A DNA stretch of 64,000 nt, from contig MCFL01000029.1 in assembly GCA_002102555.1 (NCBI GenBank), positions 265,736-329,735 on the forward strand. The letters run 5' to 3'. This stretch comes from Catenaria anguillulae PL171 (taxonomy: Eukaryota; Blastocladiomycota; Blastocladiomycetes; Blastocladiales; Catenariaceae). This document shows, piece by piece, positions 11,638 to 33,249 of the stretch; position 1 is the first letter of the stretch; each line of letters starts with the position of its first letter. The position numbers and the translations under genes were made by a program. Below the pieces are notes generated by a model. The model was not told where the DNA came from. It saw only the letters and a program-made list of their open reading frames with translations, and searched no databases.

Positions 11638-11649
11638 GGGAGGGGGTGA
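11638..11649 (+). other. Polypurine tract of Gy1
   Basis: The purine run gggagggggtga lies directly before the 3' LTR and would prime plus-strand DNA synthesis. The same run precedes the remnant LTR at 25379. Confidence 0.8.
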
Positions 11650-14289: not shown

Positions 14290-15819
14290 AAAGCCAAATC
14301 AATGAATGTAGTTCTTTAACTCCAAGCAATACATCGAGCTACTCGCCTTGACCCCAATACAAGTGTCATCGGCCCGCCTACCATGACCGACCCCATGATT
14401 GTTGATGCCCAAGCATTGGCGATCACAGGTTGGGTTGGGCCCGTCCCATTTTCCGTCGATCCACAGGCAGTAATCGCCCGCCTCAAGCCGCACTACAATG
14501 TCGTCACGCTGCTCAACCAGCGTACTGTCGCTGGAATCAAGTTCCTGGAAGTCACCTACAACAGCCATGACGATTTGGCCTTGGCCATAAGCAAGCCCTC
14601 AACTTTTTTCCGAGGCCAGTACGTCCATGCCATGACTAGCATCAAGGAGTGGCTTGACCGCCGTGCCGACCACGCCAAGAATGTGCAGATTCTTTGCACA
14701 TATGACACTGTCCGTCAGCTTCCCGGTTTGCTGGCCAAGGGCCATGCCCTGCTGGTCGACAACTGCCGCGCTCGCTCGTTCTCCCGCGTCCTGTGGCAGT
14801 ACGAGTCCAAAGAGGATGCCGATGCCGCAGTTGGCCTTGGCGAGTATGCTCTTAATGGCCATGATTTGCGCTTCTTTGCCGGTTCAGCCAGGTTGTGTTT
14901 CTCTTGTGGTTCTTTGGATCACTTGAGAACCACTTGCCCCACACGCCCTTGTGCCAAGACCTCCCTCCCCTCGTTCTCGCTCCCTGCGCCCGCGCCAACG
15001 AGTGCTGGTGGTGTTAGCTATGCTGATGCCGCCAAGCAAGCAGTCAACAAGGTCAATGACCTCGAAAAGGATTTGCGCGGCAAGGTTGACGACTTGACTG
15101 ACAAGGTGTCAGTGATGCAAGCACAATTGGCCACGTTTGTGGCCAACCAAGAAGCCCTGCTGGTGGCGTTCAAGTCGGACATGACCAAGCAGGTGGTTGC
15201 CAAGGTCGACAGCTTCGAGGAAAAGTTGATGGCAACCAACAAGAAGATCGAGGTGTTTGAGGAACGTTTGGAGTCTCTTGTTGGCTCAGTGAAGGGGTTC
15301 TTGGCAGACTTTGAGGCCCTCAAGCCTGAGTTGGAGATGACAATGGAGGACGTGGCCGAGCTCAGGTCCCACCGGGCCAAGACCTCGGAACGTTACATGC
15401 GGGTCAACCGTGATCTTGCCATCGTTGAGGTAGATCTCAAGGTTGCTTTGGACGAGCTTCGCTTGTACGACAACTTTGAGGAACGCTTGGCGGCTGCGCG
15501 GGAGAAGAGTTGGGCCCATTACGCAAAGGAGCAGGGTTCCATCGCGTACCCCGACTCCTTCCTCAGCAAGTCGTAGTTGTTGTGTTTGTTGCGCCCCCCC
15601 CCTCCCTCACTTTCCTTCCCCCCTCCCTCACTTTCCTTCCCCCCCTCCCTCAGGTCGTAAATGACCCCTACTGCCACTCGCCTGCCTTCTCTTGCTTGCC
15701 TGTGCCTCCTTTTTGGGTGCTTAAGACCCCATCCCAGTTGCTCTTGTTTCTTGACCTTGAGCTTTCCGTGTTGGATTCACGTCTTAATGCATGCAGTAGC
15801 GATTGGAAAAAAAAAAAAA
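14290..15819 (+). mobile_element. ORF1-only retroelement, copy 1 (HAL1-like)
   Basis: This 1530-bp element ends in a 13-A tail (15807-15819) and is flanked by the 15-bp duplication cagggttgtcgagcc (14275-14289, 15820-15834). The empty site is visible in LINE-H near 51015-51035. It has a 93-bp leader, one open reading frame, and a 3' UTR related to those of LINE-B, -H and -D. There is no room for an RT, so it must be moved in trans. Mammalian HAL1 elements have this half-a-LINE layout. Confidence 0.88.
14383..15576 (+). CDS. Gag-like ORF1 protein of ORF1-only element, intact
   Basis: This is a 397-aa protein, open from ATG to TAG. Residues 1-165 form an RNA-recognition-like N-terminal region without an assigned family. 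A CCHC knuckle (CFSCGSLDHLRTTC) is at about residues 171-184, a Ser/Pro/Ala linker (SAGGVSYADAAKQ) follows, and about residues 215-390 are heptad-rich and probably a long coiled coil for multimerisation. The order (N-domain, knuckle, YADA motif, coiled coil) resembles LINE ORF1, which has the same knuckle spacing. The likely role is binding its own RNA and recruiting a LINE RT. Copy 2 at 31788-32906 is a diverged relative with one stop. Confidence 0.85.
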   Translation: MTDPMIVDAQALAITGWVGPVPFSVDPQAVIARLKPHYNVVTLLNQRTVAGIKFLEVTYNSHDDLALAISKPSTFFRGQYVHAMTSIKEWLDRRADHAKNVQILCTYDTVRQLPGLLAKGHALLVDNCRARSFSRVLWQYESKEDADAAVGLGEYALNGHDLRFFAGSARLCFSCGSLDHLRTTCPTRPCAKTSLPSFSLPAPAPTSAGGVSYADAAKQAVNKVNDLEKDLRGKVDDLTDKVSVMQAQLATFVANQEALLVAFKSDMTKQVVAKVDSFEEKLMATNKKIEVFEERLESLVGSVKGFLADFEALKPELEMTMEDVAELRSHRAKTSERYMRVNRDLAIVEVDLKVALDELRLYDNFEERLAAAREKSWAHYAKEQGSIAYPDSFLSKS

Positions 15820-15834
15820 CAGGGTTGTCGAGCC

Positions 15835-17325
15835 GGTAACTCTTCTGGTGCGCGTCGCGCAATCGGTCCAACTAGCTTGCAGCGCTCCTTCCACAACACA
15901 GTCTGGACGGTCGTGGAGGCGATCGCAACAACTTGTGCCAGGATGGATGCAAGATCGGGGAACTGTTGCCGCAGATGCACATCAACCACACATGCCGCCG
16001 TTGCTCGGATCTTGGCCGTACTCATGAGCCGCTCGACAAGGGTCTTTGCCAGTCCACAGTGCGCTGACATCTTTCGGCGCCGTAGCAGCTCCACCACTTG
16101 GTCGTGCACATCCAACCGGCACGTCCAGAGAGTGTTGGCAAGCGCCGGGCATCTGTACCAGTGCTGCTGGTCGTCAAAGGCGCCACATAGTACGCAATTC
16201 GGGGATGGCACCTGGGTCGGCCAATACTTGTGGAGCTGAGCGCGAGTTGGCAGGTGGCCTGTCAAAACCTTGACGCCGAACGTGACTGATGAGTCGTCAG
16301 CAAATGACGCAAACATGGATGATGCCTTGCGACCATTGCGAATGGCTCCGTTGAACACCATCAAATCCGGCTGGCCAACCAGTTTGAGCATGTACGAGTA
16401 CAACTCGATACGGGATTGCACCTGCACTTGATTCCGAATTGCGCGACCCACCTGTGCGTACACCAACTCATGGCCGATCTGCACTAGCGCACCAAAGTCG
16501 ATCTTGCCCAGAAACTGTGGTGACAGGGCGCACACCTCGCGGCAATTTGCACCACAGCGAGCCAGCTCGTTTGCCTTCTCATTCTCCGCGTTCCCATCAT
16601 GGCCCTTGACCTTGACAAGCTCTAGCACAATACCCCTTTCTTTGACTAGTGCGCAAAGGACGAGTAGCAAATCGTGCAGTGGCGACAGGTGACGTGGCGC
16701 AACTGCTTCTGTATCGGACAAGCCCAGAAACATTGGGATGATCTGCACAGCAACCGCTGAGTCGGAAAAGACACGCGCACGCGACCCAACGGGAAGTTTG
16801 TCAACAATTGCAAGAACAGCAGCAACCTCGGGGCGTGATGAGCTGGTCGGAGCAGGCGGCAGTCGGCCGAAGATTTCCAGGTTGAGCTGGGGGCAGTGAG
16901 CACCGAGTCCCATAACGGCATCAGCCGTATTTGTAGCGGGTTGCAGCGAGCCGTCGGTCCAACAGTCAAGGATTGTGCCATGGTGCGTTGTGAGCGGTTG
17001 CGTGACATTGGCGAGAGGTGGAGCTGAGTAGGCTGAGATTGAATGGTGGCCGTCGTCATCACCGTCGCTATCGTCACTGTCAACATCCATATCATCCTGG
17101 ACATACCCAGGGAAGAAGCTGGACATGTATGGGCAATGCTCAGGCAGTTCGTGGTTAGGCGCTAGGACGACATACGCGTCTACACCGTCCCGACGCATCG
17201 TGAGAGACTTGGCTGAGATGGGATATGTGCAAGCAAGTGGAACGGTGACAAGGCAGTCGGGCACGTCACGAGTTGTCGGTGCCAGTCGGCAGTTACCTGT
17301 ATCGCCGCAGTCGAGGCACAAGTGG
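15835..17325 (-). pseudogene. LINE-B ORF2: Cys-rich linker, RNase H, zinc finger
   Basis: The frame is open through this whole piece. In order it shows the conserved HLCLDCGDTGNC block of the Cys-rich linker, an acidic spacer (DDMDVDSDDSDGDDD), RNase H (DCWTDGS, RPEVAAV, SDSAVAV, KGHDGNAENEK), a region conserved in all LINEs here (DFGALVQIGHELVY), and a C-terminal zinc finger (CVLCGAFDDQQHWYRCP). The hAT insertion cuts it at 17325, and LINE-B continues for only 30 bp at 24670-24699 before its truncated end, so no RT is present. Confidence 0.9.
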
Positions 17326-17640
17326 TAGACTTGCCACATGACGTGACGCATTTAGGTACATGTACTATCATTTTCCTCTTCTGATGATACTTGTACAGGT
17401 TGCTGGACTCAATATGTTTTACCAATACTTGCCCCATGCAAACGCGGTATTTTTGCAAGAGTCAGGGCAATACTGGTACTGGCTCATGATTCCAAGAATC
17501 ACTGATACTACCTGTCAGTGTGGTGAGGATATACAGATACTGATTGGTATGGGCTGCGTGGACAGACATGTACCAATACTGGTCAGTTCTGATGCAAAAT
17601 ACTGCTATTGGCCTGTGGATTGAGGATACTGTTGGCCACC
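17326..17640 (+). repeat. hAT left end: inverted repeat and subterminal motifs
   Basis: The terminal TAGACTTGCCAC is followed by many short motifs built on CCAATACT, GATACT and TACTGG (for example near 17422, 17469, 17508, 17573 and 17628) in both orientations. Subterminal arrays of this sort are transposase binding sites in hAT elements such as Ac. No coding sequence is seen up to 17727. Confidence 0.7.
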
Positions 17641-17727
17641 ATTGACAGAAATGAATGATGCTGTTACTGGAAAATGCCTTTACTATAGAAAACATGGATA
17701 CATTAGACAAAATACACTACAAGATTC

Positions 17728-19840
17728 TCACCACCAGGCAGGCACATCCGGGCACTTCACAAGGGAATGCTTGTCTAGCGACTCTGCAACAAGCTGCATC
17801 ACCTTCTTTCCTTCCAAAGACACACCGCCAAAGCCAAGCTCCTTCAGCTCATCTTCTGGTACTGCTGACGACAATTGTGCACGGATTGCCTTAATCTCCT
17901 CCTTGGACAAGTGGCACAATGTCTCATGGATTTCAGTGATCTTGCCCTGAAATCCCGAACGGCCAGAGTCTGGGCGGGCAGCAAGCACACAAAACAACAC
18001 AGGGCCAAAGACCATGTACAAGTGCATGAGGCACCGGCAGTACGACACATAGTTTGCCTTTTGGCATTCTGGCACGGCCTTCAAAGCTGAAAGTTTGACT
18101 TTGCGGGGAATGTTGACCTTGACCTGATGTTGTTTCTGTGCATTTGTTAGCTCAAGGTCAAAGGAGCTTGCCACCATTGTGGCAACGACCAAGCTTGCCG
18201 GCACAGTGTGATTCGGCTTGCTGGTCAACACATCCACCTCACCCTCGGGAGCAACGCGATTGGATACTTCGGACAGCATCCACAAGAAGTCGGTCAAGGC
18301 ACCCATGGCAGACAAAACAGCCGCCGTTCCTTGTGCCGACTCAGCAGCCTTCCACCCACTTTGCCGGCCAATGCCTGCATTCAACACCCCCTTCAACTGC
18401 TCCCAGACCGTAACACCATTGCTTGCCTTCATACGTTTGTGCCCCTCCTTGGCCCAAGCGACGTACTCGGAGATCCTGTTCCCCAGGATCATCTGCAAAA
18501 AGAAGAAGAAAAAAAGTCCGTTAGCATGAAGTCTTCGGCAGCCGAAGACTTTGCCTCGGTGACGTGGTGGATCAGCACGCGATCGGCCATGACGATCGAC
18601 AGCCCGTGAAGCGGTGAAGCAGGCTCAATGAGATGTGGCAGCGGCTGACACGGAGGCCGAGGCAAGTGATAAACAAGCTAAATATACATACCTTGCTCGC
18701 AATGGAGTCACCACTGCCAACCACCCCATCACCGGCAACGATAGCCTTACGCCGCCGCTTGGGCACCGGCGCCACCATGGCCTCAGACGCGACATCCTCC
18801 TCTCCGTCGACATCGCCAATAGACCGCTTCTTGGACTCTTGAGGGTCCTGCTTGACAGCGCCAGCAACTTGGCGCTCGCCCACAAACACGATATCTGGTG
18901 TGTGCAGGTCCTCGCCCTTGTCCTTGCCCTCGCCCTTGCCCTCGTCCTCGCCCTCGTCCTTGTCAGCAAGTAAGGACAAGGACTGCACAATGGTTTCGAT
19001 TGCGGCATTGTCCTTACCGATCTTGGCTGTCGAAGCGAGCTGCTTGTACAGGCCGACTACGCATCTACACAAAAGAGCAGCATGAGTACAACCAGTCGTT
19101 TGCAGATTGATACAGAAGTTGAAAGCCACGTACTTGGCCACAATTTCGGGTGTCACCTCGTCCAGCGCAATGGGCAAATGGACCTTGTACCTGGAAGGGA
19201 CTTGATCAAGGCCAGCCGACATGGCGCCAGGCGAGGCGGGCGGGCCATCGGTGGTAGTGGTCTTGGCCGACATGGCGCCAGGCGAGGCGGGCGGGCCATC
19301 GGCAGTAGTGGGCTTGGCCGACATGGTGCTGGGCGAGGCGGGCGGGCCATCGGTGGTAGTGGTCTTGGCCGACATGGTGCTGGGCGAGGCGGGCGGGCCA
19401 TCGGCAGTAGTGGGCTTGGTCGACATGGCGCCAGGCGAGGCGGGCGGGCCATCGGTGGTAGTGGTCTTGGCCGACATGGTGCTGGGCGAGGCGGGCGGGC
19501 CATCGGCAGTAGTGGGCTTGGTCGACATGGCGCCAGGCGAGGCGGGCGGGCCATCGGTGGTAGTGGTCTTGGCCGACATGGTGCTGGGCGAGGCGGGCAG
19601 GCCTTCGATGGTCAAAGAAGTGGTCATTCTGTCAGGGGTGTCTGTGATCTTTGATAGCATGATATTCGCCAGGGGAGAATGAAACAAGCTGTTGCTTTCA
19701 ACTGTGCCCCAGTCAATTGAACCTGTCATGATGCGTTTAGAACTCGAGCTGGATTGCTGGCAACATGAATGGAGATTCTGTCTCAGGACGTCATGTTCAT
19801 TTAGCTCAGTCGGTTCGCATCTGCAATCAATACAGAACAT
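17728..19840 (-). CDS. Second gene of the hAT element, unknown function
   Basis: I do not recognise this protein. Exon 1 (19840-18692) and exon 2 (18492-17728) join in phase 0 across a 199-bp intron with donor GTATGT and acceptor TTTTGCAG. From the first ATG it is about 637 aa, but the start is uncertain: ATGs at 19840 and 19626 are both possible. Exon 1 carries eight 17-aa Pro/Thr/Ser repeats (DGPPASPGAMS core), a Cys-containing segment, an acidic-Lys stretch (GEDEGKGEGKDKGED) and a basic nuclear-signal-like VPKRRRKA. Exon 2 is helical-looking with no motif I can name. A further 69-bp intron (19133-19065, GTACGT to GTGTAG) is possible; the frame stays open with or without it. It is transcribed away from the transposase gene. 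It could be an accessory factor or captured host sequence. Confidence 0.65.
18529..18551. repeat. Palindrome in the intron of the second hAT gene
   Basis: A perfect 23-bp dyad, AAGTCTTCGGC then its complement around a single base, lies in the intron between the two exons. Its arms match the three palindromes in transposase intron 2. Confidence 0.85.
19217..19590 (-). repeat. 51-bp coding tandem repeat, eight units
   Basis: Eight units start every 51 bp (19217, 19268, 19319, 19370, 19421, 19472, 19523, 19574); the last is diverged. Two unit types alternate (ggtggtagtggtcttg against ggcagtagtgggcttg endings), so the array probably grew in 102-bp steps. Each unit encodes 17 residues of the minus-strand gene without breaking frame. 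Confidence 0.95.
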
Positions 19841-20210
19841 CAGTGTATCGAACCTGACCGTTATTGTTTTGGTTAGCCGGGCAATGTCACATGGTTTTTT
19901 TGAAAGGTGTCAGGCAACAGAAAACAAGCAACTTGCTGTCAAGGCAGTGTTTTTTTTTTTCTCTGGCGGCGATGGAAGATCGTTCAGTCTCACTCTCCAC
20001 CATTATGTACACTGACCATGATGTACCCGATAACCTATTGAGCAAGCCAGATGTTACCATGCACAAATGCCGCTGACAACACCGCAAATCACTCGAAAAC
20101 TTGGCACATACAACTGAATGGCTCACAATGTCAGTGCATGTCGGCAAACTCGCATAAAATGAAAACCCTCTGACACATTCTGTAATGTGCGATTGGCTGC
20201 GACACACGGA
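19841..20210. other. hAT intergenic spacer, left of the tandem array
   Basis: No coding sequence could be supported here. This stretch lies upstream of the minus-strand gene and should contain its promoter. It includes a T10 run near 19950. Confidence 0.5.
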
Positions 20211-20893
20211 CGGCACTCACCTTTCGACAAGCTATTCACGGGCAAACCAATTGCTGCGAATCTTTTGATACCATTGGTATGTCGGCGGCATGCCGGCAAG
20301 TGGTCGAAATCGCATTGTCTCACGACTAGCACCATGTCACGTCCGTTCATGTGCATGTTTCCCGACATGAACACTTGGCGGGAAATGGACTGCGGCACAT
20401 GAGCGGCACTCACATTTCGACAAGATATTCACCGGGAAACCAATTGCTGCGAATCTTTTGATACCATTGGTATGTCGGCGGCATGTCGGCAAGTGGTCGA
20501 AATCGCATTGTCTCACGACTAGCACCATGTCACGTCCGTTCATGTGCATGTTTCCCGACATGAACACTTGGCGGGAAATGGACTGCGGCACATGAGCGGC
20601 ACTCACATTTCGACAAGATATTCACCGGGAAACCAATTGCTGCGAATCTTTTGATACCATTGGTATGTCGGCGGCATGCCGGCAAGTGGTCGAAATCGCA
20701 TTGTCTCACGACTAGCACCATGTCACGTCCGTTCATGTGCATGTTTCCCGACATGAACACTTGGCGGGAAATGGACTGCGGCACATGAGCGGCACTCACA
20801 TTTCGACAAGATATTCACCGGGAAACCAATTGCTGCGAATCTTTTGATACCATTGGTATGTCGGCGGCATGCCGGCAAGTGGTCGAAATCGCA
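20211..20893 (+). repeat. 193-bp tandem repeat between the two hAT genes
   Basis: Units start at 20211, 20404, 20597 and 20790, exactly 193 bp apart, giving three full copies and a 104-bp partial. Units 2-4 are almost identical and unit 1 is slightly diverged. Each unit contains small dyads such as the region around catgtttcccgacatg. The array sits in the shared upstream region of two divergent genes, so a regulatory or transposase-binding role is plausible but unproven. From 20894 to 21098 I see no feature beyond the transposase leader. Confidence 0.95.
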
Positions 20894-21098
20894 ACGATGA
20901 CTCTGACTCGCAATTGGCCGTTTGCACCAGGCAGCAGATCATGTGTGACCATGTGATGGATAAATCGATATCAGAATCAGCTCCCTGCATTTCCCATGTG
21001 CCCTTGTCAGCGGTGTCGGCAGAGTGTTTGCCTCACATGGCTGTGACCTGGCTCCCTTTGGCAATTACTAGTCAGCCATCCACATTCGCAGGACAAAC

Positions 21099-24000
21099 AT
21101 GACAACCACCACCTCCTCAGGCTCAGCGGGTCGCAAGAGACAAGCTTCTCGCTCCCCGGACCGCCAGCCAGCAGTCAACAAGCGGCCCAACATGAGCGAT
21201 GACGTGATTTCACTCGATGACAGCGACCATGGTATGTTGGCCCTTCCCTTCTTCATGCCCCACTCCAGTTTCTGAGTCCCATTTCGCTTTCTGCCAAAGC
21301 AGAATCAACCGATCAATCCACCACCACCACCTCCACCAACACATCGCATCAGCCCAAACCTTCAACCAAATTGGGGGCATACGGCAAGTACTTCTTCCCT
21401 CCGAACCAGAGCCCAGATCCTGCCGAGTACGCCGACGTCCTCCACCGCCTCGCAACTGTTCTGGGTATGACTGGGGCCACTCTGCCAATGGCCGCAACTT
21501 TTGAAACTGCCGACAACCTCTACCTTTGCCGCCTTTGCATGGCCAAGGTTGTCAACAGCACGCACACGACCACCAACCTTGCCTCCCACCTCTTCCACCA
21601 CCATGAAAAGTTCATGAGCAAGCAAGAAGATTTGAAAGACGCATTCGCTTCCGCCAAAAAGACCAAGAACAAGGAACCTGGCCGAGGGCAAACTGACATC
21701 CGTGCCGCCATGGCTGGGCCAGCTGCAGGTGCTCGGCGGCCCAGCCCTGCACAACAGGCCAAATTTGACGAGGCGGTGGTTCGGTTCTTGGTTGGGACGA
21801 ATCAGTCAATCCGGGTTGTGGACGACAAAAACTTCCGCGAGCTTATTGAATTGGCTGGGGGCAAGTTCCGTTTGTTTGGGCGCACAACGATGACCAAACG
21901 GATTGTTGCGTCGTCTCAAAAGGTGATTGAAGAGCTCCAAACGCTCGTCAAGGGCTCGTCGTCCAAGTTTAACATCATCATGGATGGGTGGACTGCGGGG
22001 AATCAAGTGCAATTTTTTGGTATGTTCATTTTCACTGCCCATCACGATCCTTCCCTACGCGTTTGCAAAGTCTTCAGGATCCGAAGACTTTTTGCTGTCC
22101 ATGTCTCTCTCCCTGCCTACCTCCCAAAGTCTTCAGGACCTGAAGACTTTTAATATTGCCTCAAAACTCCCCTTCTCTACCTCTACCGCCATCTCGCCCA
22201 GCAAAGTCTTCAGGATCCGAAGACTTTCACCCTGTGCTGCTTAACGCGTTCCTGTCTCATCAACTGTGCCGCTGTCTCACTTGATCAAACAGCAATCACC
22301 GCGTCCTTCCTCACGATCGACGATCAACATGCAATCCACCACCAAGCTCTCCTCGACTTTGTCCCAACCAATGCCAAGACTGGTGACGAAATTGCTCATC
22401 TAATCAAGAACGTGCTTGCTACATACAACATCACACTTGAGCAAGTTGTTGCGCTGACAATGGACAATGCCTCATCGAACACAAAAGCCCTTGATACCCT
22501 CAACGGCGTGCTTCGCAGGGAAGGCTCGTCCCACAAAATTGAGGGCGTGTACTGCCTGCAGCACAGCACCAACCGAGCTGCGCAACGGGTCATTGACATT
22601 CTCCACTGGCTTGTACCTGGGGTATGTGATTAAACTTGCACTGGTTTTCTGTCTGCATCAGTTTGACTCTGACTAACACACCACTTGCATTACCAGCTGA
22701 GGAAACTCCTGTCGGCACTCTACTACAGCCCAACCATCCGCACAGCGCTTGAAAAGGCGTGCAATGCAGCAGGTATTCAATACAAGGTCCCTCGACATGA
22801 TGTCCGGACACGTTGGAACAGCACCTGGGAAGCCCTCAATCGACTACTGGAATTGAAGCCAGCCATCCTTCTTGCGTCCACTTGGGTTAACGATGAACGT
22901 CTTGGGTTGCTTGAAAAGCACCATTGGGACTACGTTGGTTTGTGCCCTTCATTTGTTTTGCATCCTGCCAGTGATCCACCTGCTGACTTCATTCTTTTGC
23001 TAGAGGAATTTGTGGAACTGCTTTGCCCTTTCTGGGAGTACACACAGTTCACCGCTGCTGGTGTTGATACATGGACTTTGCCGTGGGTCTTACCATGCTA
23101 CGATGGACTGATGGACACCTTGGACGAGTTTGTTGCCTCCCGTTTGCACCCATCAGATTTTGCTCGCGTTGATCAAGAAGATGTGCTCAGCGCTATCAAC
23201 CTCAAGCAGGCACCAGCAGATTTTGCTGCGAATCCTTTGTTGGGCGATGATGCAGCTGGCTATGTCATTGGCGAGTTTGATCAAGATGAGGAGGAGGACG
23301 AGGAAGGCAAGGTAGCCGAGGATGGCCTTGAGAGCGAGAGGGCCAAGGAAATCGAAATGGCGTTTGGCGGTGTTCATGATTCACAGGCAACCAAGGATTC
23401 CAGTGCACCTGACATCATTGGTGGGCAAGAATCCGTCTTTGCACTGATTAGCGAGGATGATGACGACGAGAATCAGCTCATCTTGGATCTGGTTTCAGTG
23501 CAAGGCCGGGTCAAGGAAAAGGTTGACAAGGAAAAGGTCCCCAAGGACAAGCTTGCCAGTAAAATGGCTGGTGCTGGTACACTGTCCCTTGCCGGATTGA
23601 CGCCAAAGCAAGCCGCTGCTGTTGCAGCAATTGCTTGCTATGGGCTCATCCTCAAGCACTTTAACAACACCAGCGACCTGCACAGTTTGTCGACATTGTT
23701 GGATCCAGAAACCAATGGCGGTGACACGGTCAAGCGCTGGGAAAACGACCAGAGTTACTTCCAAGTGTATCTCCAGGAACCGTATGTTTGAGCTGTTTGC
23801 CATTTGCCCGCGCAACTGTTTGCTAACCTCAAGACGGATTTTGCTCTGGCAGACTTGAGCAGCGTGTCAAAGCACTCTTGCCCGAGCCTGCATCAACAGA
23901 AAAACAACAGCAAGCAAGCATCGTGAGTGCCAAGAAAGGCGTCAGCGGCCTTGCCAAGGCAAAAGCAAGGATCCTCGGCTCAGGCAGGAACCAGCAGAAC

Positions 24001-24321
24001 CCGAGGCCGGCTGGCATTGACGCCATTCAAGTTGAGCTGGGTTTGCTGAAGTCTGAGGCACTACGTGCAAGTGCATATGCTGAGGAAGATGGGAAAGGTG
24101 TTGACTCGTTTGCCTTTTGGCATGGGCAAAGGGATCGGTTCCCAATGCTGCATTCGGTGGCAAAGGACCTGCTCCCCATCGCAGGTACATCCACCAGTGT
24201 CGAGCGCATCTTCTCTGTCTGCCGCAACATCCTGCGGCATACTCGTGGTCGCATGTCAGCTCAGCTGTTCCGGGCGACCGTGTTGAAGAAAATGGCCATG
24301 TTGTCTGAGGCCGAGGAATGA
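21099..24321 (+). CDS. hAT transposase, five exons, apparently intact
   Basis: Exons 21099-21231, 21300-22019, 22293-22621, 22697-23781 and 23853-24321 join in frame to a 911-aa protein. All four introns begin GTATGT and end AG; intron 1 has a second acceptor 3 bp on (21302). Domains: a basic N-terminus (GRKRQASRS, VNKRPN), a BED-type zinc finger at about residues 118-150 (CRLC, HLFHHH), the conserved FLVGTNQSIRVVDDKNFRELI block, the first catalytic Asp in IIMDGWT (about 272), the second in TMDNASSN (about 340), VRTRWNSTW, an acidic insertion (DEEEDEEG), and the C-terminal dimerisation region with FAFWHGQRDRFP and the TSVERIFS Glu (about 841-870). It cuts and pastes the element. No stop or frameshift was seen. 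Confidence 0.92.
22067..22227. repeat. Three 25-bp palindromes in transposase intron 2
   Basis: Near-perfect dyads with arms AAAGTCTTC and GAAGACTTT lie at 22067-22091, 22126-22150 and 22203-22227, within the 273-bp second intron (22020-22292). The other three introns are 68-75 bp, so the repeats account for much of the extra length. Confidence 0.9.
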
Positions 24322-24661
24322 TGTGGTGTGTGTTCGTCAGATGTTGCTCCATTTTAGCTTTATTGTACGCATAATGTATTCTCCCAATTTTTATGATCAG
24401 ACTATTTTACAAATACTGCCCATTTAAATGCTGATACTATGCCAACATCAGATTCCTGAATACCAATACTGCCTGAGTACCAGACTCTGAAATACCAATA
24501 CCACCCACCAATATACTGAAAAATGGTGAAAAAATGCCCAAAAACCAATACTGGTTCTCAAAAAAATCTCGCAAGCGACAGATACCAATACAGCAGTATC
24601 ACCATTTTTGAGTATATACTATGTGGAAGGCAAACCCAGTATTGAGCACGTGGCAAGTCTA
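24322..24661 (+). repeat. hAT right end: 3' region, subterminal motifs, inverted repeat
   Basis: After the transposase stop there is an AT-rich stretch with TACCAATACTG-like motifs near 24409, 24430, 24460, 24493, 24544 and 24583. It ends in GTGGCAAGTCTA, the complement of the left terminus. A polyadenylation signal could lie in the A/T-rich 24350-24380 part. No other gene is seen. Confidence 0.75.
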
Positions 24662-24714
24662 ACAAGTGGAGTAGAGCGTGGTCGGGGGGCACAACACCCC
24701 GCGCAATTCCTTGG

Positions 24715-25264
24715 TGGACGCCCCGCGGCTCACAGGGCCAGCCCAAGCGGTGAGGCGTTTGGCTTGACCATCCACCTCAATCCAGGCGTGTTTTTTGATG
24801 CGGCATGATCCAATGCCACGGACGTTAAGAACGTTGGGGGGAAGGGCGCTAGTACTGAACACCATCTTGTAGATCGCTTCCTGCGGCAAGTCGGGTTTGG
24901 GGAAATTGTGGAGGGGGTAGAGCCCAATGAACAGAAGCTGCGTCATTTGGAGCGCCAGTCGGACAGCTTGCCCAATGGATCCAACAGCCAGGTCGCCAGG
25001 GGGGATCGGAATGACAACCGCGTATTCCTTGTACTCATCGCTGTTGGATCCAATATCAACCTGCTGACCACCATGGCGCTGCGCGAGAGCCTCATTGCGA
25101 ATCTTCTTGTCACGCCTACGGACTAGGGTGAAGCCATCGTTGGTGGTAGCGTCGGGTTGTTGGTGATAGCGTTGCTGATCGGCGTCTGGCATTTCAACGT
25201 CGCCGGCTGTCGATCCAGGCGGCGGCGGGTCACCAGCGCTTGTGGTGGCGGCGTTGGTGGCCAT
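24715..25264 (-). pseudogene. LINE-A ORF1, N-terminal third
   Basis: The ATG at 25264 begins MATNAATTSAGDPPPPG; I chose it because sequence further upstream is leader and then LTR. A low-complexity Pro/Asp/Gln start is followed by FTLVRRRDKKIRNE and the conserved VRGIGSCRIKKHAWIEVDG and GPVSRGASTKELR blocks, which recur in the ORF1 fragment at 28121. The frame continues at 13597 after LINE-B is removed. About 100 bp upstream (25265-25363) appears to be the LINE 5' UTR. Confidence 0.85.
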
Positions 25265-25363
25265 GGTGGGCAGTAAGAGTCGGTGTACAGATGTTGTTGA
25301 AGTAATTGCACAAGCTTTCAATTGTGTATTCATAGATTTTTCCATTTCCCAACACAGTGTTAT

Positions 25364-25588
25364 GCTGGGAGGGGGTGATGTTGGGGTTGTGTAGGAGAGT
25401 GCATGTGTATGCCGTTCATGTGTGTGCATGTGATGAGTTATTGAGTTGTTGTGTGTTTGTGTTTGTGATCCGTGACCCAGCAGTTGGGCACAAACCCATG
25501 GTTACCTCTTCAGATAATTCTGGGTCGTCTAGTATATACTACCCGTGCTTGATGACCTTCTAGTCTTACCTATGCAAGCACGCCAACA
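25364..25588 (+). repeat. Remnant 3' LTR of a Gy1-family element
   Basis: The purine tract gctgggagggggtga (25364-25378) is followed by a 210-bp LTR (25379-25588) with TGTTGG and CCAACA ends, matching the Gy1 LTRs with scattered differences. No internal coding region remains on the left, where LINE-A begins. LINE-C sequence follows directly at 25589. Confidence 0.9.
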
Positions 25589-26554
25589 CAGCGTGCTCTG
25601 CGCTGGTGGACCTCCCTGCCAGCATACCCACCATTGAGCATCTGCTCCCAGGTCGCCCAAAGAACCCCATCATCCGTTATCAACCTCTTGCCCCTTCTCT
25701 CGCGGTTGTTTCTGTCCATCCACCTTGTCGGTCGCGCTGATCTGTTCCTTGTCTCACCCTCTGATGACATCCCCCTTGCCAGTGGTTTTGGCATAGTGGC
25801 ACCACTCCCGCCTTGCAAGGCGAAGGTTGTGGGTTCGAACCCCACCCAAGTCATCTGGTGCACATGTGGCTGCTTGGTCTCTGCTCCACATTGCCTCCTT
25901 CTGTCCCCTCGCCTTCCGGCCCCTGCACCTGCATTGCATGCACTCTTGCTTTGCCCACCCTCTGTTGGTGGATGTACAAGATTGGAATCAAGCCAAAGGC
26001 CCAAGGCCCCAAGCAAGTACCCAAGTGCCAAGTCCAAGGAGTTGTGTGTTTGTGTGTATGAGCTTGTGTCTTTGTGTATCAATGGTAAGATCTCCCTCAG
26101 TACATAGGCTGCTTGTATTTTTAAAAAAAAAACTCTGATGACATCCCCCTTGAGTCGGTTATTCCTTTCGACGTTTTGCACATTCTCAGACCCCACCTGC
26201 TCCGTTCTTGTGTTTTTACCCTTTCCCCTCTGATCTCTACCATTTTTTTTTACAACCAAGACAGCACCACGACCCGGTTTGCAAACGCCGTAGCATCCAC
26301 TCATCGCCTCCTTGCACCTTGGTGCCAAAGAAATGGGTGTGTTTTTCAAGCGCTCCAACGCCTTGTTGATTGTGTCGCCACGCGGTGTGCATCGCTTGGT
26401 CGCACGCTCCACCCGCTCACCACGCCGCGCCATGTCAGGCAACCGTACTATCATGTCGGCCAGCTTTTTGTCTGGGAGAGCAACGGCGCTGTTGTCTTTG
26501 GTCTCTGCGCCAATGTCGACCGCCGAAGTGACCCCAATGACACAATCCTCTTTG
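25589..26554 (+). mobile_element. LINE-C fragment, split by a SINE
   Basis: Pieces 25589-25777 and 26152-26554 match LINE-F (43575-44160) and LINE-G (58860-59450). They cover the region after the RT (ALRWWTSPL, LLPLLSRLFLSIHLVGRAD) into the Cys-rich linker. A SINE separates them with a 19-bp duplication. The fragment stops at 26554 where another SINE begins; the RNase H part is missing. Not translatable as one frame. Confidence 0.85.
25778..26132 (+). mobile_element. tRNA-derived SINE, copy S1
   Basis: This 355-bp element has Pol III A-box (tggcatagtgg, 25789-25799) and B-box (ggttcgaaccc, 25832-25842) motifs in a degenerate tRNA-like head and an A-rich tail (26121-26132). It is flanked by the perfect 19-bp duplication ctctgatgacatccccctt (25759-25777, 26133-26151). 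The empty site is visible in LINE-F near 43737. The acceptor stem no longer pairs, so it is not a tRNA gene. Confidence 0.93.
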
Positions 26555-26850
26555 TTTTTTTTTAAATACAACCATCTTTGCATTTAGTGGAGACACAAGT
26601 ATTTACACAAGTAACATAGACTCACACATGCCACCTACACACAACTCCCAAGGACTTGATGCATAATGCGTGCTTGTTAACTTGATGCTTGGCTTGGCTA
26701 AAGCAACCACACACATTGGTGGACCAGGGCCTCGACTCACAAATGGAGGTGGACAAGATAGATGGAGGGCCAAGCGACTTGAGTGGGGTTTGAGCCCACA
26801 ACCTTCGTCTTGCAAGACAGAAGTGTTACCACTGTGCCAAAACCATTGGC
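26555..26850 (-). mobile_element. tRNA-derived SINE, copy S2
   Basis: The minus-strand copy has its A-tail as T at 26555-26563 and a head with B-box (ggtttgagccc) and A-box complements near 26795-26845. The body and tail differ from S1. No matching duplication was found at the two ends, because the LINE sequences either side are not contiguous. Confidence 0.8.
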
Positions 26851-27515
26851 TTCCAAGACGCACTCTGGGAATGTGGTGTTGCCGTTCATGACCAAGTTGA
26901 GACATTGCTCTGCAAGCACGGCCTGACAGCCCATGCCCAGATGGCACGTGCCCTTGTGGACTTGCTGTTGACCAAGCAATCACTCTGTGCCACGGCAGCG
27001 TGCGTCATTCATCTCTCCGTCCGCCAACGATTCCCTCGGCTGGCGCCACTCCTGCCACACAGTGTCATGTGCACATCAGCCACTGTTTGGCAGGTGGTCT
27101 GGAAAAGATGGTGTGAGCTCTTCAGCCCGATTGGAGATGAGGATCCAGACGCCACCCAGTGCCTCTGCAACATTTGTCAGCAAGCACGTCCGGCGGCTGA
27201 GCAGCAGGTTTTGTTGGGCGATGACGTGTCCCTTGTTGCCGCGCACTACCTCCATGAGTGCCAAGCAGGCCTTCCCCCCTCCTTGGCAAGCAGTCGGTGG
27301 CTCTCCACCTGGTTCCCCTTGGCATTAGGCAGGCGCATTCAGCGTTTCCTGGCTTGGCAGCCCGACAATTTGGCTTTGTGCACTCTCGACAACGGTTTGC
27401 ATTGCATGTTGGTATGTTGTCTGGTACCCACCTTGTTTTTCCCCCTATCCTCTCTGTGGTCAGCAGTTCTTGTTGATATCACAATTATTGCATAGCTCAG
27501 AAAGAAAAAAAAAAA
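26851..27515 (+). pseudogene. LINE ORF2 C-terminal fragment
   Basis: The frame from about 26860 to 27495 encodes the C-terminal region after the zinc finger (ATAACVIHLSVRQRFPRL-like block and CLCNICQQ Cys motif) and ends TAG before an A-tail at 27504-27515. It is a distinct subfamily from LINE-A/B and LINE-C'. Its 5' side is the SINE S2. Confidence 0.75.
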
Positions 27516-27888
27516 ACTGGTTCTTGTTGTGCATGGATTGGTGTGGTGTTGGTTCCTTGCGATGTTGTTCCCCCCCTCCCCCCACCACTGCCTGTGTGAC
27601 ATTGTGTCCCTGCCCTCACGCTTCCTTGTCCTAGTTGCCCCTCTGCCCTGCTCTTGTGTTTCGTTTCTTTCTCTCTTTTTTCCTTGTGGTAATTGTTTTG
27701 TTCCAACATCCCTACCCCCCTCTGTATTTGTTTTCCCCTGCCGGTCTTTCTTTGACCCCTACTGCCACTCGCCTGCCCTTTCTTGCTTGCCTGTGCCTCC
27801 TCTTATGGGTGCTTAAGACCCCAGCCCAGTTGCTCTTGTTTCTTGTTCCTGAGCTTCCTTTGTTGGCAGTAGCGACTGGAAAAAAAAA
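27516..27888 (+). mobile_element. ORF1-only element, 3' fragment (copy 3)
   Basis: Sequence from about 27738 matches the 3' UTR of copy 1 (15660-15806) closely and ends gcagtagcgactgg plus nine A (27880-27888). No coding sequence of the element is kept; the C/T-rich 27540-27735 part is probably also its 3' UTR. No clear target duplication. Confidence 0.7.
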
Positions 27889-28085
27889 GTGTCCAGTTGG
27901 TCAGTCTGTTGTTTGTTTCACAGGTTTCTTGAACATCCACCTGCAGCTGCGGCGATGACTGGCCTGGCAGTTTTTTTTTTATAATACAAGCAGCCAGTGG
28001 TTTTGGCACAGTGGTAACACTCCTGTCTGTCCAGAGTAGAAAAGGCAGTCTGAAAAATCTATGTAAAGCACCTCAAGCAAAGTCC
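27889..28085. repeat. Fused SINE pieces and unassigned sequence
   Basis: 27889-27968 is unassigned. A T-run and ataatacaagcag (27969-27992) resemble the tail of a minus-strand SINE. Directly after it, cagtggttttggcacagtgg (about 27993-28012) is the head of a plus-strand SINE that loses similarity by about 28030. No gene is seen. Confidence 0.55.
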
Positions 28086-28120
28086 TCAACACTTAACCTT
28101 CCAACGAATTCCGCCAAACA

Positions 28121-28591
28121 TGGCCACGCTTGCCGAGCCCCCTGCCATGGGCGGCCTGGCTGCCCCAGGTCGCACCCCACCCAAACTGATTGACGCCGAA
28201 ATGCGAGACAACGGGTGAGTCATCTTGGGCAACAATGAAAACGACAAGTACCTGGTCAAAGTCCCCAAGCACAAGATAGTCAATGGGGCCACCGGGATTG
28301 CCATGAAGATGCTGGCCGACGCCATGGACATGCAGCGGATCCCATACCGCGACCTCAGGAAGTGCCCTGGCCAGATTGGCGACTTTGTCAAGTTTACGTT
28401 CTCTCTCGCCGTCATGCCGCCAGATGCCATCAAAGTCAAGGGCCTTGGCAGGATGCGCATTGAGAAGCGTGGATGGGATGAGGTGGATGGCGAGAAGCGC
28501 CAGTTTGTTGGATTTGCTGGGCCACTGAGCAGGGGTGCCAGTCTGGGCGAGGTGAGGGAGTTTTTGTCAAAGCAGTGGGGCAAGCTGCAGG
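28121..28591 (+). pseudogene. LINE-E ORF1 N-terminal fragment
   Basis: The ATG at 28121 begins MATLAEPPAM. The conserved ORF1 block (VKGLGRMRIEKRGWDEVDG, GPLSRGASLGEVREF) is shared with LINE-A ORF1. An in-frame TGA lies at 28217-28219. The frame ends where SINE S3 is inserted (28592); the same sequence resumes at 31537 for a short distance before jumping to ORF2-derived sequence. Confidence 0.8.
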
Positions 28592-28646
28592 TTTTTTTTT
28601 TTTTTAAAAGTTTAACCTCAGACAATTGCACTTATATGACATTCAA

Positions 28647-30881
28647 CCCCCTCTGATCTCTACCATTTGTTTTTACGACCAAGACAGCACCACGACCCGG
28701 TTTTCAAACGCCGTAGCATCCACTCGTCGCCTCCTTGCACCCCGGTGCCGAAGAAATGGGCGTGTTTTTCACGCGCTCCAACGCCTTGTCGATTGTGTCG
28801 CCACGCGGTGCGGATCGCTCGGTCGCACGCTCCACCCGCTCACCACGCCGCGCCATGTCAGGCAACCGTACTATCATGTCGGCCAGCTTTTCGTCTGGGA
28901 GAGCGACGGCGCTGTTGTCTTTGGCCTCTGCGCCAATGTCGACTGCCGAAGTGACCCCAACAAGACAATCCTTTTATTTCGACACCTCCGGCCATGCTGT
29001 TGCCCACTGGCCCACCAAGTAGCGCCCAAGCCTGGCGGCACTCTGCTACACCTCTGCCTCGATTGTGACGACCCGCTCCAATGCAAATTTGCACATGACC
29101 GCCTGTTGCAACAGGCCAGACTGCACCACCGCAGTACCGCTTTCGCTCGCCCGGCCAGTCTCCGCTCTTCAATCAGTAGATCGACAGGATGGCCCAGTTG
29201 CCTTTTTGGTCCACGCTCCAGATTCTGCCCACCCACACCTGTGCCCATATGTCCAGCTGCTGCGAGAACCAGTGTTTGGCGATCCCAATCACGACGCGTC
29301 AGACTCCGGGGACCGCTCAAGCGCGGCGACGATGACGACCCACTACATGCCAGCGAGCTGGCTATTTTCAAGTACCTGCCAACGTCGAATCGTGGCCCGT
29401 TCACGCGGGCGACGCGGAAGGTGCTTGATTGTTGGACCGATGGCTCACTCCAGCCTGCCACCAGCGCCTCGGTAACGCTTATGGGTTTTGGCGCACACTG
29501 CCCCACACTTGGCATTGAGCTTTTTGGCCGCCTCCCCACGGCACCAGCCAGCTCGACTCGTGCTGAGCTTTACGCTGTCTGCGCGCTCGCTGCATACCTG
29601 CCTCCAAGTTCTCGCGCCCGCGTCCACTCTGACTTGGCAGCAGCGTGTCTCCTTGTCACCACCACACTCTCTGAACCCACCACGATCACTGCCAAAATGC
29701 GCTCGCCGCCCACGCTGCTCGATCTCCTCCTTGTTTTGAGGGCAATTGTGTGCTGCCGCAACCTGAGCATCACCATAGTCAAGGTCAAAGGCCACTCAGG
29801 GGACTGCAACAACGACAAGGCTGATCAGCTTGCGTCGCGGGGGGCATCGGTGCCTCGGGCATGCAGGTTTAGCAAGGAATTCCTCGCAGAGATCGACTTT
29901 GGCGCACTGTTGCAGCTTGGGCACTTGCCAGTGTACACCAGCCTTGGCAAGGCGCTCCAGGCGGCATCTCGGGCAGAAGCAAGGGTGCAGCTCACGAGCC
30001 ATGTGTACAAGCTCATCCCGGAGCCCGACATGCTCATATTTGCAAAGGCCATTCGCAGTGGCCGCAAGCCCGCCTCGCGTGTCGCATCATTCTCCCTTGA
30101 CTCTCTGGTCACTTTCCGCGTCAAGGTGCTCACGGGACGGCTCCCAACGCTTGCCCAATTGCACATGTACTGGCCAGATCGCGCCCCGTCACCGCTCTGC
30201 ACGCTGTGTGGCTCTTTGGATGACCAGCAGCATTGGGTGGTGTGTCCAAGGCTGGCTGACGAGCGGTGGGAGCTTGGTGTGGCGGCCCATGAGTGCGTTG
30301 AGCAACTTTTGCCAGGTGCTGACACAACTCTCGCAGTCCAGGCAAGAAGTGTGCTTGCCCACTTGTTGCACCCAAGTCGCCTGCGCGCAACAGCGGCGTG
30401 TGTAGTAGACTTGGCACTACGCAGAAGGTTCCCCGGACTTGCATCCCAGCTCCCGCGGATTGTGGCAAGTGTTTCGTTGCTCATCTGGTGCACGGTGTGG
30501 AAGCCCCGGTGTGAGAAGGTTGGCTCGATTGCTCCACCGGGCCAAGACAACCGAGGCGCGACCAATTGCCTCTGCCAAGTATGCAGGACCAAAGGTCAAC
30601 AACAACGTCAAGTAACGGCACCTGTGTCTGCAGCTGAAATTGCATGCCACTTCACGCACGAGTTGGCTGTTGGTGCCCCACCCCTCCTTGGTGCTGCCCA
30701 AGACGACATCAGGCCGCTTCCGTGGGCATTCTGGCATCACCTTGGTGCCATGCCAGGCCTGGCACAACCGCTATTCGGACTTCAGCCATCAACAAAACGT
30801 TTCGTAAACCGGGTTGTGGTGCGCAGCTTGTCTGGGCCCCACACGACTTTTGTTCCTGTCCTCTCCCTGCCACAAACCTAG
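28647..30881 (+). pseudogene. LINE-C' ORF2 C-terminal half (RNase H, zinc finger)
   Basis: The frame is open to the TAG at 30879-30881. It includes the end of the Cys-rich linker (LLHLCLDCDDPLQC), RNase H (LDCWTDGS near 29430, RAELYAV, KGHSGDCNNDKAD), the DFGALLQLGHLPVY block, the zinc finger (CTLCGSLDDQQHWVVCP near 30200) and the CLCQVC C-terminal motif. One catalytic RNase H Asp reads Leu (HSDLAAA where copies F and G have HSDSAAA; the Asp itself is kept). Between about 29105 and 29340 the homologous protein lies in another frame, so two shifts cancel out. Confidence 0.85.
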
Positions 30882-31329
30882 CCCCCCGACAGTCACCCCG
30901 CCCGCCTCACTCCCTCTTCTGAACTTGCGTTGGAAAAATGAAAACCACCGCAAAAAAAAAAAAAAAAAAAGATCGGATGTCTCACATGGACTGTTTGTTT
31001 CCCCCGCTCCCCTGCATCGATTGTCATACGCCCGTGCCTCGACCCCCCCCCCCCAACCTGCACTCTTGATGCTGCCTTTGCCCTCACCTTGATTTCTTGC
31101 CCTTATCACCATTGGCTTACATATTCTTCCTTCCCCCTCCCCCCTCCCCCCCCCCCGCCCCACTGTTGCCAACCGCTCCTTCCATTGTGTTGTGTGCCTG
31201 TTGCTGCCTCTGGCAGGTGTATTCTGAGTGTCTGTCTGAATTATCCACCCTTTCCCTTCCTCTTTGGGTGTTCAGAGCTGATACGATTTTATAAATACAT
31301 GCAACGTGGTTAACAAAAAAAAAAAAAAA
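30882..31329 (+). other. 3' UTR of LINE-C' with internal A-run
   Basis: A 19-nt A-run at about 30952-30970 is followed by C-rich sequence ending tacatgcaacgtggttaac plus the terminal A-tail. LINE-G has the same layout at 61355-61793. No coding sequence is seen. Confidence 0.75.
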
Positions 31330-31683
31330 TGACATTCAAGGACACACAACCACACAACACAATGTCTTGATGGAGATGGGAGGGAACTTGGGAAGTCTTG
31401 TGCTTTGACATAGGCATGACCACAGAGGGACATGCGATGCTTGTCTTGAGAGGACCAAGCGACTTGGGTGGGGTTTGAACCCACAACCTTCACCTTGTGA
31501 GGTGGGAGTGTTACCACTGTGCCAAAACCACTTGGCGGCAAGCTGCAGGTCGAAGGTTCTATTGATATCCTCGGATCGGCCATTCGTAATGGTCGCAAGG
31601 CATCGGCCATGTTTGCATCATTTGCCGACGACGCATCAGCGTCAAGGTTTTGACAAGTCGCCTGCCAACTCGTGCTCAACTCC

Positions 31684-33156
31684 GGTAGCCCAACACGCAA
31701 ATCGGTGAATAAAAGCAATTATCACTCTCAGCAATAGTCTTTAGAGCACCAAGCCACCCCAAAACAGTCACCATCTCGCTGCCTGCCATGACCGACGCCA
31801 TGGATGTTGATGTTGAGGCATCAGCATTTATGGCCTGGGTGGGACCAATCCCCCATTCTGTCCTCCAAGAACCTGCCCTGGCGCACCTCCAACGCACATA
31901 CAAGGTCCTGTCCATCCTCAATCAACGCCTCCTCAGCGGAAATCGTTTCTACAAGGTCAAATTCAACAACCAACAAGATTTGGCTGATGCCACCAGCAAG
32001 TCCCCCACGTTTTTCCGCGGCCAGTTTGTCCATGTCCTCAAGGATCTGCAGACTTGGCTTGACCAAAGGAGCGCCATGGAGAAGAATATCCAGGTGCTAT
32101 GCAACTACAAGTCTGTGCACCATCTCCCCGCCCTTCTTGCCAAAGGCCATGTGCTCTTGGTTGACAACTGCTGAGCTCGCCCATTTTCGCAAGTGCTTTG
32201 GCACTACACGGACCAAAAAGATGCAGCAGATGCTGTCTCGCTTGGCAAGTTGGCTGTCAACAGCCACGATTTGTGTTTTGCCGCCAGTTCCGCAAGGCTT
32301 TGCTACTCATGTGGCGAGCCTGGCCACTACAAGGAGGCTTGTCCCACCAGGCCCATTGCCAAGTCGCCTCCCTCTGGGCCACGCCCCTTTGCCACGCCAA
32401 CAAGTACCAGCAGTGTTAGCTATGCTGATGCTGCAAAAATGGCGGTCGAAAAGGTGGATAGGGTTGACAAGGATTTACGTGCAGAGGTGGCCGGCCTGTC
32501 GGCGCAGATTGGACGCATGCAAGAGCAACTCAACAAGTTTTGTGCCCAGCAGGATGTGCTGCTTGCGGCGCTTAAGCTGGGACTCGACAAGACAAACAAG
32601 GCAGTTGAGGAGGTTGAGGAACGCCTTGAGTCACTCTCTGGTTCAGTTGAGGGGCTTTTGGCTGACTTTAACACCCTCAGCACCAAGTTTGACCTTGTTA
32701 AGGCCAAGGCCGAGGGCAACGTTTCGCCCAAAATTGACCTGGACCCGGACAGCCCACTTGTGCAGTTCATTGAGAACAGGATCATGCAGGTTGTTTACAA
32801 GGAGACCAAGGATTTGGAAGCCTGTGTTAACGACCTCTTTGAGAATGTCTTTGATCTTGAGAGGAAGTTGGAGAGGAGGTCACATGTGTCACCTCGCAAG
32901 AGGTGAGCTGTTGCACTCTGCTCTTCCCTTTTTGGTTGTTTTTGTTGTTCCTTCCCTTCCTTGCCCTCTTCCTTCCCCTTCCCAAGGTCTTAAGTGACCC
33001 CTACCACCACTTGCTTGCCTCTTTTCTTCTTGCTTGTGCCACATCAGTGGGTGTTTTGTATAATGAGCCTTCCTGTCTTCTCATGTCGCTGTGACTGGAG
33101 CCTTGTGTTGGGTTAATTGTCCAAATATATGTGGTAGTGACTCAAAAAAAAAAAAA
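31684..33156 (+). mobile_element. ORF1-only retroelement, copy 2 (HAL1-like)
   Basis: This 1473-bp element has a 13-A tail (33144-33156) and the 15-bp duplication ctcgtgctcaactcc (31669-31683, 33157-33171). The layout is as in copy 1: short leader, one gag-like frame, C/T-rich 3' UTR ending atgtggtagtgactc plus A. The overall sequence is diverged from copy 1, so this is a separate subfamily and not a recent duplicate. Confidence 0.9.
31788..32906 (+). pseudogene. Gag-like ORF1 protein, copy 2, one stop
   Basis: 372 codons in one frame with a single TGA at 32172-32174, where copy 1 has Arg (LLVDNC followed by RARSFS). It has a CCHC knuckle CYSCGEPGHYKEAC, the SYADAAK motif and a long coiled-coil-like C-terminus ending VSPRKR. 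The N-terminal region matches copy 1 in order and spacing (FFRGQ, WLDQR, LLAKGH). Confidence 0.85.
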
Positions 33157-33249
33157 CTCGTGCTCAACTCCACAAGTATTGGCCAGAGCGGGTACCGTCC
33201 CCGAATTGTGTGCTCTGCGGTGCTCTCGACGATCAACAGCATTGGCTCA

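What the first reader, a model, noticed from the sequence alone, without database searches (positions are those of the whole stretch)
14290..33156. ORF1-only retroelements (half-a-LINE) in a fungus-like genome
Two elements (14290-15819 and 31684-33156) have a short leader, a single gag-like CCHC/coiled-coil ORF, a 3' UTR, an A-tail and 15-bp target duplications. A third is a 3' fragment (27516-27888). None has room for an RT. The two longer copies are clearly diverged yet share domain order, which argues for a persisting family and not a one-off deletion. Mammalian HAL1 has this layout. I am not aware of such a family described in fungi, but cannot check.
Basis: partly seen in the sequence, partly recalled or inferred. 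Interest (0 to 1): 0.82.

Follow-up and report, generated by a model that had tools for sequence, protein, structure and literature searches.

The report
Gag-only jumping genes swap LINE tails
A fungus carries a long-lived family of jumping genes that make an RNA-binding-type protein but no copying enzyme; they appear to be copied by full-size retrotransposons whose end sequences they share, and seem to have exchanged those ends.

Summary
The two elements are real and the class is genuine. The window lies in the 41-Mb Catenaria anguillulae PL171 assembly. The ORF1 protein has 110 matches there. Of 31 copies examined with flanks, 21 have a poly-A run and a target duplication; 20 of the 30 fetched loci have an unbroken ORF of 363 aa or more. 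dN/dS is 0.15-0.45 in 11 pairs. Two copies at different sites have no mismatch over 1447 aligned bp. Two-ORF LINEs (ORF1, then endonuclease-RT-RNase H) exist in the same genome, but their ORF1s are only about 18-35% identical and those sampled lie across a 100/100 branch, so these are not recent internal deletions of them. The "third copy" (27516-27888) is a LINE 3' end, not an ORF1-only fragment; it shares 90% of 114 bp with the tail of copy 1. Relatives with 91-97% identical ORF1 starts carry different tails (62-69%), and a pair with 61% identical starts has tails 92% alike. Best reading: an old ORF1-encoding parasite of LINEs, copied in trans through a shared 3' tail, that has swapped tails. 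It works like HAL1 but is not shown to derive from L1. My searches listed no such family in fungi.

The parts
14275..14289 (+). 5' target-site duplication of copy 1 (CAGGGTTGTCGAGCC)
   Evidence: identical to 15820-15834
14290..14382 (+). leader (5' UTR) of copy 1
   Evidence: matches nearly the whole leader of nine other S1 hits at 95.7-98.9%; L005 lacks its first 34 bases
14383..15576 (+). ORF1 of copy 1, 397 aa: two RRM-like folds, CCHC knuckle, long coiled coil (predicted)
15577..15819 (+). 3' UTR and poly-A of copy 1; the last ~150 bp are the LINE-A-type tail
   Evidence: 90% over 114 bp to the LINE end at 27753-27866
15820..15834 (+). 3' target-site duplication of copy 1
31669..31683 (+). 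5' target-site duplication of copy 2 (CTCGTGCTCAACTCC)
   Evidence: identical to 33157-33171
31684..33156 (+). copy 2, a diverged subfamily (47% aa identity to copy 1); its ORF frame 31788-32906 is broken by TGA at 32172-32174
33157..33171 (+). 3' target-site duplication of copy 2
26849..27888 (+). 3' end of a LINE-A copy: end of ORF2, internal A-run, 3' segment and the tail shared with copy 1
   Evidence: no target duplication was found for it
33523..38736 (+). LINE-C ORF2 (endonuclease below its Pfam cut-off, RT, RNase H), a candidate type of helper; its 3' end is near 39691
   Evidence: tail similarity to copy 2
12402..13751 (-). ORF holding a 5'-truncated LINE ORF1 part on the minus strand, followed by ORF2 pieces 12228-11860 and 4913-2, split by a Gypsy element

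Best explanation
These are non-autonomous, poly-A-ended, non-LTR retrotransposons that encode only an ORF1 protein (two RRM-like domains, a zinc knuckle, a coiled coil). They form one old lineage, separate from the ORF1s sampled from two-ORF LINEs of the same genome. The likely cycle: full-length RNA is made from the short leader; its own ORF1p coats it, preferentially in cis; the RT-endonuclease of a LINE recognises the shared 3' tail and poly-A and copies the RNA into the genome by target-primed reverse transcription. Exchanges of the 3' part, probably by template switching between element RNAs, gave related bodies different tails. Shown by sequence: structure, target duplications, selection on ORF1, recent copies, tail sharing, mosaicism. 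Inferred: which LINE supplies the RT, cis action of ORF1p, template switching as the cause.
For: 110 ORF1 matches in the genome. Duplications in 21 of 31 copies; control 2 of 180, both from one shared site. L020/L021 have 0 mismatches in 1447 aligned bp (14 gap columns) and L020/L023 have 3 in 1447 (25 gap columns), at three sites with different duplications. dN/dS 0.15-0.45 in 11 pairs, two regions each, dS 0.04 to 1.7. None of 98 ORF1-only-type matches has an RT in LINE layout once the 9 with a nearby RT are looked at, against 17 of 32 hand-chosen LINE ORF1 matches with RT 1.9-2.8 kb downstream. ORF1-only 21 rows and LINE 5 rows are separated by a 100/100 branch. Tail sharing: copy 1 tail with LINE-A 87-90% over 114-146 bp; L020 tail best with LINE-B; copy 2 best with C21/LINE-C; 7 of 7 tails scored above the best of 20 shuffles. 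Swaps: L016/L018 ORF1 start 97%, tail 67%; L011/L018 61% and 92%; L009/L020 91% and 62%.
Against: No expression or movement data. RNAalifold found no common structure over 17 tails, so recognition of a folded tail, as in stringent-type pairs, is not supported. The LINE match is strong only for tail A. The LINE-B match of L020 is 66-79%; copy 2's tail scores 55 and 51 with C21 and LINE-C but also 47 with LINE-A, a small margin; the L011, L016 and L018 tails score 37-51 with no clear LINE partner, and no LINE was firmly found for the S3 tail. Only 5 LINE ORF1 rows were in the tree, and long branches meet at the split, so its root and depth are unsure. One of 22 dN/dS bootstrap intervals includes 1 (L001-L006, codons 1-200).
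Confidence: 0.78

Rival explanations
1. Ordinary half-LINEs: each subfamily is an internal deletion of a LINE that lost ORF2, formed several times, as stated for HAL1.
For: Layout is the same, and HAL1s are said to have originated independently several times (PMC5753468, passages). The tails do match LINEs.
Against: All 21 ORF1-only rows in the tree sit on one side of a 100/100 branch, with 18-35% identity to LINE ORF1; they lack about 170 aa of the LINE ORF1's N-terminal part.
Confidence: 0.1
2. An autonomous parent with this ORF1 type and an ORF2 once existed and is extinct or missing from the assembly; today's elements are its orphaned ORF1 half. This concerns origin and is compatible with the best explanation.
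For: The origin must be some LINE-like ORF1; the search scores only the best candidates (104 of 219), and the assembly has 457 contigs.
Against: No such copy among 98 matches; the fused ORF1-RT pieces on C165 and C13 are joins to a different RT, decayed on C165 (C13 by coordinates only).
Confidence: 0.3
3. The ORF1-only elements help the LINEs by supplying ORF1p in trans (a split, mutually dependent system).
For: ORF1 is under purifying selection in elements without RT.
Against: LINEs of this genome carry their own ORF1 (C21, C101, C223, C357), and selection is explained by cis benefit.
Confidence: 0.05
4. Retrocopies of a host gene encoding an ORF1-derived protein (in the manner of L1TD1).
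For: Poly-A, duplications and intact ORFs would look alike.
Against: 18 of 20 bounded copies keep their subfamily's leader start (by eye), and subfamilies hold different LINE-type tails. I did not search for an intron-bearing source gene.
Confidence: 0.04

Closest known systems
HAL1 (half-L1) of mammals
   Same: Encodes only ORF1p, no RT, non-autonomous (PMC5753468, passages).
   Different: HAL1 derives from L1 and arose several times (same passages). Here one clade in the tree, predicted order RRM-RRM-CCHC-coiled coil, a specific 3' tail shared with LINEs, tail exchange, a fungus.
HeT-A of Drosophila (its gag-only layout is recalled; abstracts in the listing)
   Same: A gag-type ORF without RT that depends on another element.
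   Different: HeT-A maintains chromosome ends; these insert internally with duplications of 13-21 bp.
Tail-sharing SINE/LINE pairs (eel UnaL2 and its SINE; SINE name recalled)
   Same: The 3' tail is common to the non-autonomous element and the LINE, taken as RT recognition (PMC3747384, passages).
   Different: SINEs have a Pol III head and no protein; these encode a selected ORF1.
Chimeric retroelements of Magnaporthe grisea
   Same: Fungal LINE machinery joining different RNAs by template switching, one with 14-bp direct repeats (PMC2104539, abstract).
   Different: Those fuse a non-coding RNA, a SINE and a LINE; here exchanged parts are found in subfamilies with intact ORFs and several copies.
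Sadhu elements of Arabidopsis
   Same: Diverged, old non-autonomous elements with target sites consistent with LINE mobilisation (PMC2848041, abstract).
   Different: No conserved ORF1-type protein (recalled).

Membership tests
HAL1 / half-LINE in the broad sense | Encodes ORF1 only, no ORF2 or RT | tested here: met
HAL1 / half-LINE in the broad sense | Retroposed copies with poly-A and target duplications | tested here: met
   21 of 31 copies; control 2 of 180, both from one shared site
HAL1 in the strict sense | ORF1 derived from a contemporaneous L1 (close ORF1 identity to a two-ORF LINE) | tested here: not met
   18-35% identity and a separate branch against 5 LINE ORF1 rows; not all LINE ORF1s were sampled
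HAL1 in the strict sense | Helper belongs to the L1 clade | not tested
   no RT tree was built
SINE | Pol III-type head and no long ORF | tested here: not met
   ORFs of 363-450 aa under selection; ARAGORN called no tRNA in the two window copies, no other Pol III test was made
Stringent-type LINE/non-autonomous pair | 3' tail sequence shared with a LINE | tested here: met
   strong for tail A, weaker for the others
Stringent-type LINE/non-autonomous pair | Conserved stem-loop in the shared tail | tested here: inconclusive
   RNAalifold gave 0 pairs on 17 rows; a 4-6 bp GGTC...GACC hairpin is seen by eye only
HeT-A type | Attached to chromosome ends, no target duplication | tested here: not met
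   insertions with duplications on both sides

The most novel reading that the evidence does not exclude
A single ORF1-encoding lineage without RT has persisted for a long time as a parasite of several LINE families at once by swapping its 3' tail, so that it can move from one helper LINE to another when the first dies out, while its own ORF1 is kept by selection because it acts in cis.
Probability: 0.45. Interest if true: 0.75.

Novelty: new variant of a known kind. Interest (0 to 1): 0.62.

Why it matters
It would show that ORF1-only retrotransposons can be a lasting, diversifying lineage and not only short-lived LINE deletions, and that they can exchange the sequence that binds them to a helper. 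Selection on ORF1 in an element that has no RT is a natural test that ORF1p acts in cis on its own RNA. Because nearly identical bodies occur with different tails in one genome, helper choice by the tail is directly testable. In my searches I saw no ORF1-only family listed for fungi; those searches cover open-licence papers only.

Tried and rejected
Internal deletion of known LINEs: rejected on ORF1 distance and adjacency counts. A two-gene split system in which LINEs lack ORF1: rejected, since C21, C101, C223 and C357 have ORF1 directly upstream of ORF2. An ORF1-RT element on C165 and C13: C165 was read and is a decayed join to a divergent RT; C13 was judged by coordinates only. Consensus tail structure: none found; DNA alignment on a short piece was mis-registered and not used. 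Pfam on ORF1: no family above its cut-off; zf-CCHC 13.3 bits against 20.8. Relatives elsewhere: 11 of 11 and 13 of 13 protein hits are C. anguillulae; the LINE ORF1 search gave none; each search scored only about 8000 candidates. A target duplication for the LINE-A fragment in the window was sought and not found. The structure rows are common RRM matches and show a fold, not a function; Foldseek TM-scores for the whole model are low (0.15-0.29 by query in the rows shown). The viral structure library was not searched.

Rows left out. Target-duplication work covers the 30 best ORF1 loci plus copy 2, so weaker fragments are not represented. Of the 31, 10 gave no duplication: L004, L010, L014, L015, L024, L025, L026, L028, L029, L030. 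One search scanned minus-strand loci in the wrong orientation and was replaced; it did find a duplication for L028, outside the range, the same as L022's. L027 and L030 overlap as one locus; L022, L025 and L028 look like copies of one insertion. The swapped-flank control drew the same six 3' flanks for every 5' flank. The tree used 26 rows; L002, L004, L005, L007, L008, L013, L015, L027, L029, L030 were left out as broken, partial or near-identical, and only the C-terminal piece of the L070 LINE ORF1 was used. The adjacency count used ORF1 matches of 41% identity or more, 32 of the 74 rows chosen by hand (mostly longer ones, so the 17 of 32 is not a random sample), and RT rows typed by hand: at least 14 of the 150 were left out, on contigs without ORF1 matches or (two on C13) over 370 kb away. 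The dN/dS pairs were chosen: 11 of the 55 possible among 11 sequences. Tail tables use chosen copies; the shuffles were compared with 3 LINE tails, the real tails with 7.

Full report
What is there. The window is C212:265736-329735 of a 41,071,450-base, 457-contig assembly; the matching public proteins are all named Catenaria anguillulae PL171, and contig lengths agree. A search with the 397-aa ORF1 gave 110 matches, a lower bound (104 of 219 candidates scored), from 100% down to about 28% identity. The 98 of 41% or more are the ORF1-only type, some being pieces of one copy; of the 12 at 28-36%, 11 overlap LINE ORF1 matches.

Retroposition is well supported. Of 31 copies examined with flanks, 21 show a duplication of 13-21 bp next to a poly-A run, 18 exact and 3 with 1-2 mismatches. 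Pairing 31 5' flanks with the 3' flanks of six other copies gave 2 of 180, both from a site shared by L022, L025 and L028, which look like copies of one insertion. Of the 30 fetched loci, 20 start with an unbroken ORF of 363 aa or more. L020, L021 and L023 have different duplications and differ pairwise by 0, 3 and 6 bases in about 1450 aligned, with 11-25 gap columns. By eye, 18 of 20 bounded copies begin at or upstream of their subfamily's leader start; L005 and L011 begin inside it.

Selection. Between 11 chosen pairs dN/dS was 0.15-0.45 in both regions tested (codons 1-200; whole ORF), with dS from 0.04 to 1.7. Of 22 bootstrap intervals 21 lie below 0.8; the exception is L001-L006 over codons 1-200, with only 11 differences and an interval up to 2.49. 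The estimates are simple NG86 counts, and recombination between copies makes whole-ORF values approximate.

The LINEs. The same genome has LINEs with ORF1 and then ORF2 carrying endonuclease-like, RT and RNase H parts: on C21:7328-14382 the matches span nearly all of both ORFs without stops; C101, C223 (L063) and C357 are others. Of 32 hand-chosen LINE ORF1 matches, 17 have an RT match on the same strand 1.9-2.8 kb downstream. Of 98 ORF1-only-type matches, 9 have any within 5 kb, and I count none as LINE layout: C196, C167:7562 and window copy 2 are closed by poly-A and duplications before the RT; C436:16358 is followed by an S3-type tail and a separate LINE ORF1; four are the C165/C13 joins; C379:5849 is a 61-aa fragment. 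Identity between ORF1-only and LINE ORF1 is 18-27% over full alignments and up to 35% over the best 185 or so residues. A tree puts 21 ORF1-only rows and 5 LINE rows on opposite sides of a 100/100 branch; the program warns that long branches meet there.

The tails. Its last part matches the copy 1 tail at 90% over 114 bp, while LINE-A ORF1 and copy 1 ORF1 are 24-31% identical. Copy 2's tail is nearest C21 and LINE-C (69-73%), with a small margin over LINE-A (scores 55, 51 and 47); tails like it (71-73%) lie 605 and 640 bp past LINE ORF2 matches at C212:265878 and C433:109824. L020 carries a LINE-B-like tail (66-79%), and that tail is found at 100% over its length in L021 and L023 only. Seven of seven tails tested scored above the best of 20 shuffles. 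Of 17 aligned tails of both kinds, 16 keep AAT-A/G-C/T-ATG near the end and 14 a following TAG-C/T-G. No common fold was predicted.

Exchange. ORF1 starts (codons 1-200) and tails disagree: L009/L020 91% and 62% (98 bp), L020/L011 94% and 68% (81 bp), L016/L018 97% and 67%, but L011/L018 61% and 92%. Sliding identity shows abrupt changes inside the elements, and also a shared ORF1 C-terminal part between L001 and L016 (up to 98%), whose first parts are 47-73% alike. Template switching by the RT is the likely cause; such switching is reported for a fungal LINE (PMC2104539, abstract). Gene conversion between genomic copies is not excluded.

How it probably works. Own ORF1p packs its own RNA, a LINE ORF2p in trans recognises the tail and poly-A, and insertion follows by target-primed reverse transcription. 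Cis action of ORF1p is inferred from selection: an ORF that served any RNA equally would not be kept in a non-autonomous element. Sharing of tails as a recruiting device is the established idea for SINEs and stringent-type LINEs (PMC3747384, passages).

Known or new. HAL1 encodes only ORF1p and arose several times from L1 (PMC5753468, passages; the primary HAL1 paper was not held). The present family works in a similar way but is one separate clade in the tree, has a tandem-RRM ORF1 by prediction, and shares and appears to swap specific tails. Literature searches listed no fungal ORF1-only family; several returned mostly unrelated papers, one search returned none, and Repbase itself was not searched.

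Noticed in passing
window 27505-27516 with 27880-27888; 30952-30970 with 31315-31329; 61421-61443 with 61778-61793: Two LINE families (A, B) have a double 3' end: an internal A-run, then about 335-365 bp, then the terminal poly-A; for family A the arrangement is kept in seven places as one unit.
   Followed up: partly
window 4916-11859: A Gypsy-type LTR element, whose two LTRs agree at both ends in the 20 bases compared, inserted in a minus-strand LINE; its part 8168-11859 is 99% identical to one on C112.
   Followed up: partly
window about 26768-26847, 27990-28035, 31452-31535: A dispersed tRNA-like stretch near LINE copies, seen by eye; ARAGORN called none of them. It could be a SINE.
   Followed up: no
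L002, L006, L007, L021, L022, L023 (5' ends): Up to about 24 extra bases of varying sequence between the target duplication and the conserved leader.
   Followed up: no
L069 (C165:14601-17400); C13:519758-521113: A decayed ORF1 fragment fused at residue 267-268 to a divergent LINE RT fragment, in inverted pairs at two places.
   Followed up: partly
L061, L062, window 14290 and 31684: Several ORF1-only copies sit inside LINE ORF2 sequence, so the islands are nested; no shared target sequence was evident by eye.
   Followed up: partly
window 31804-32997: An open 397-aa frame overlapping copy 2 in another frame than the homologous ORF1; probably chance.
   Followed up: no
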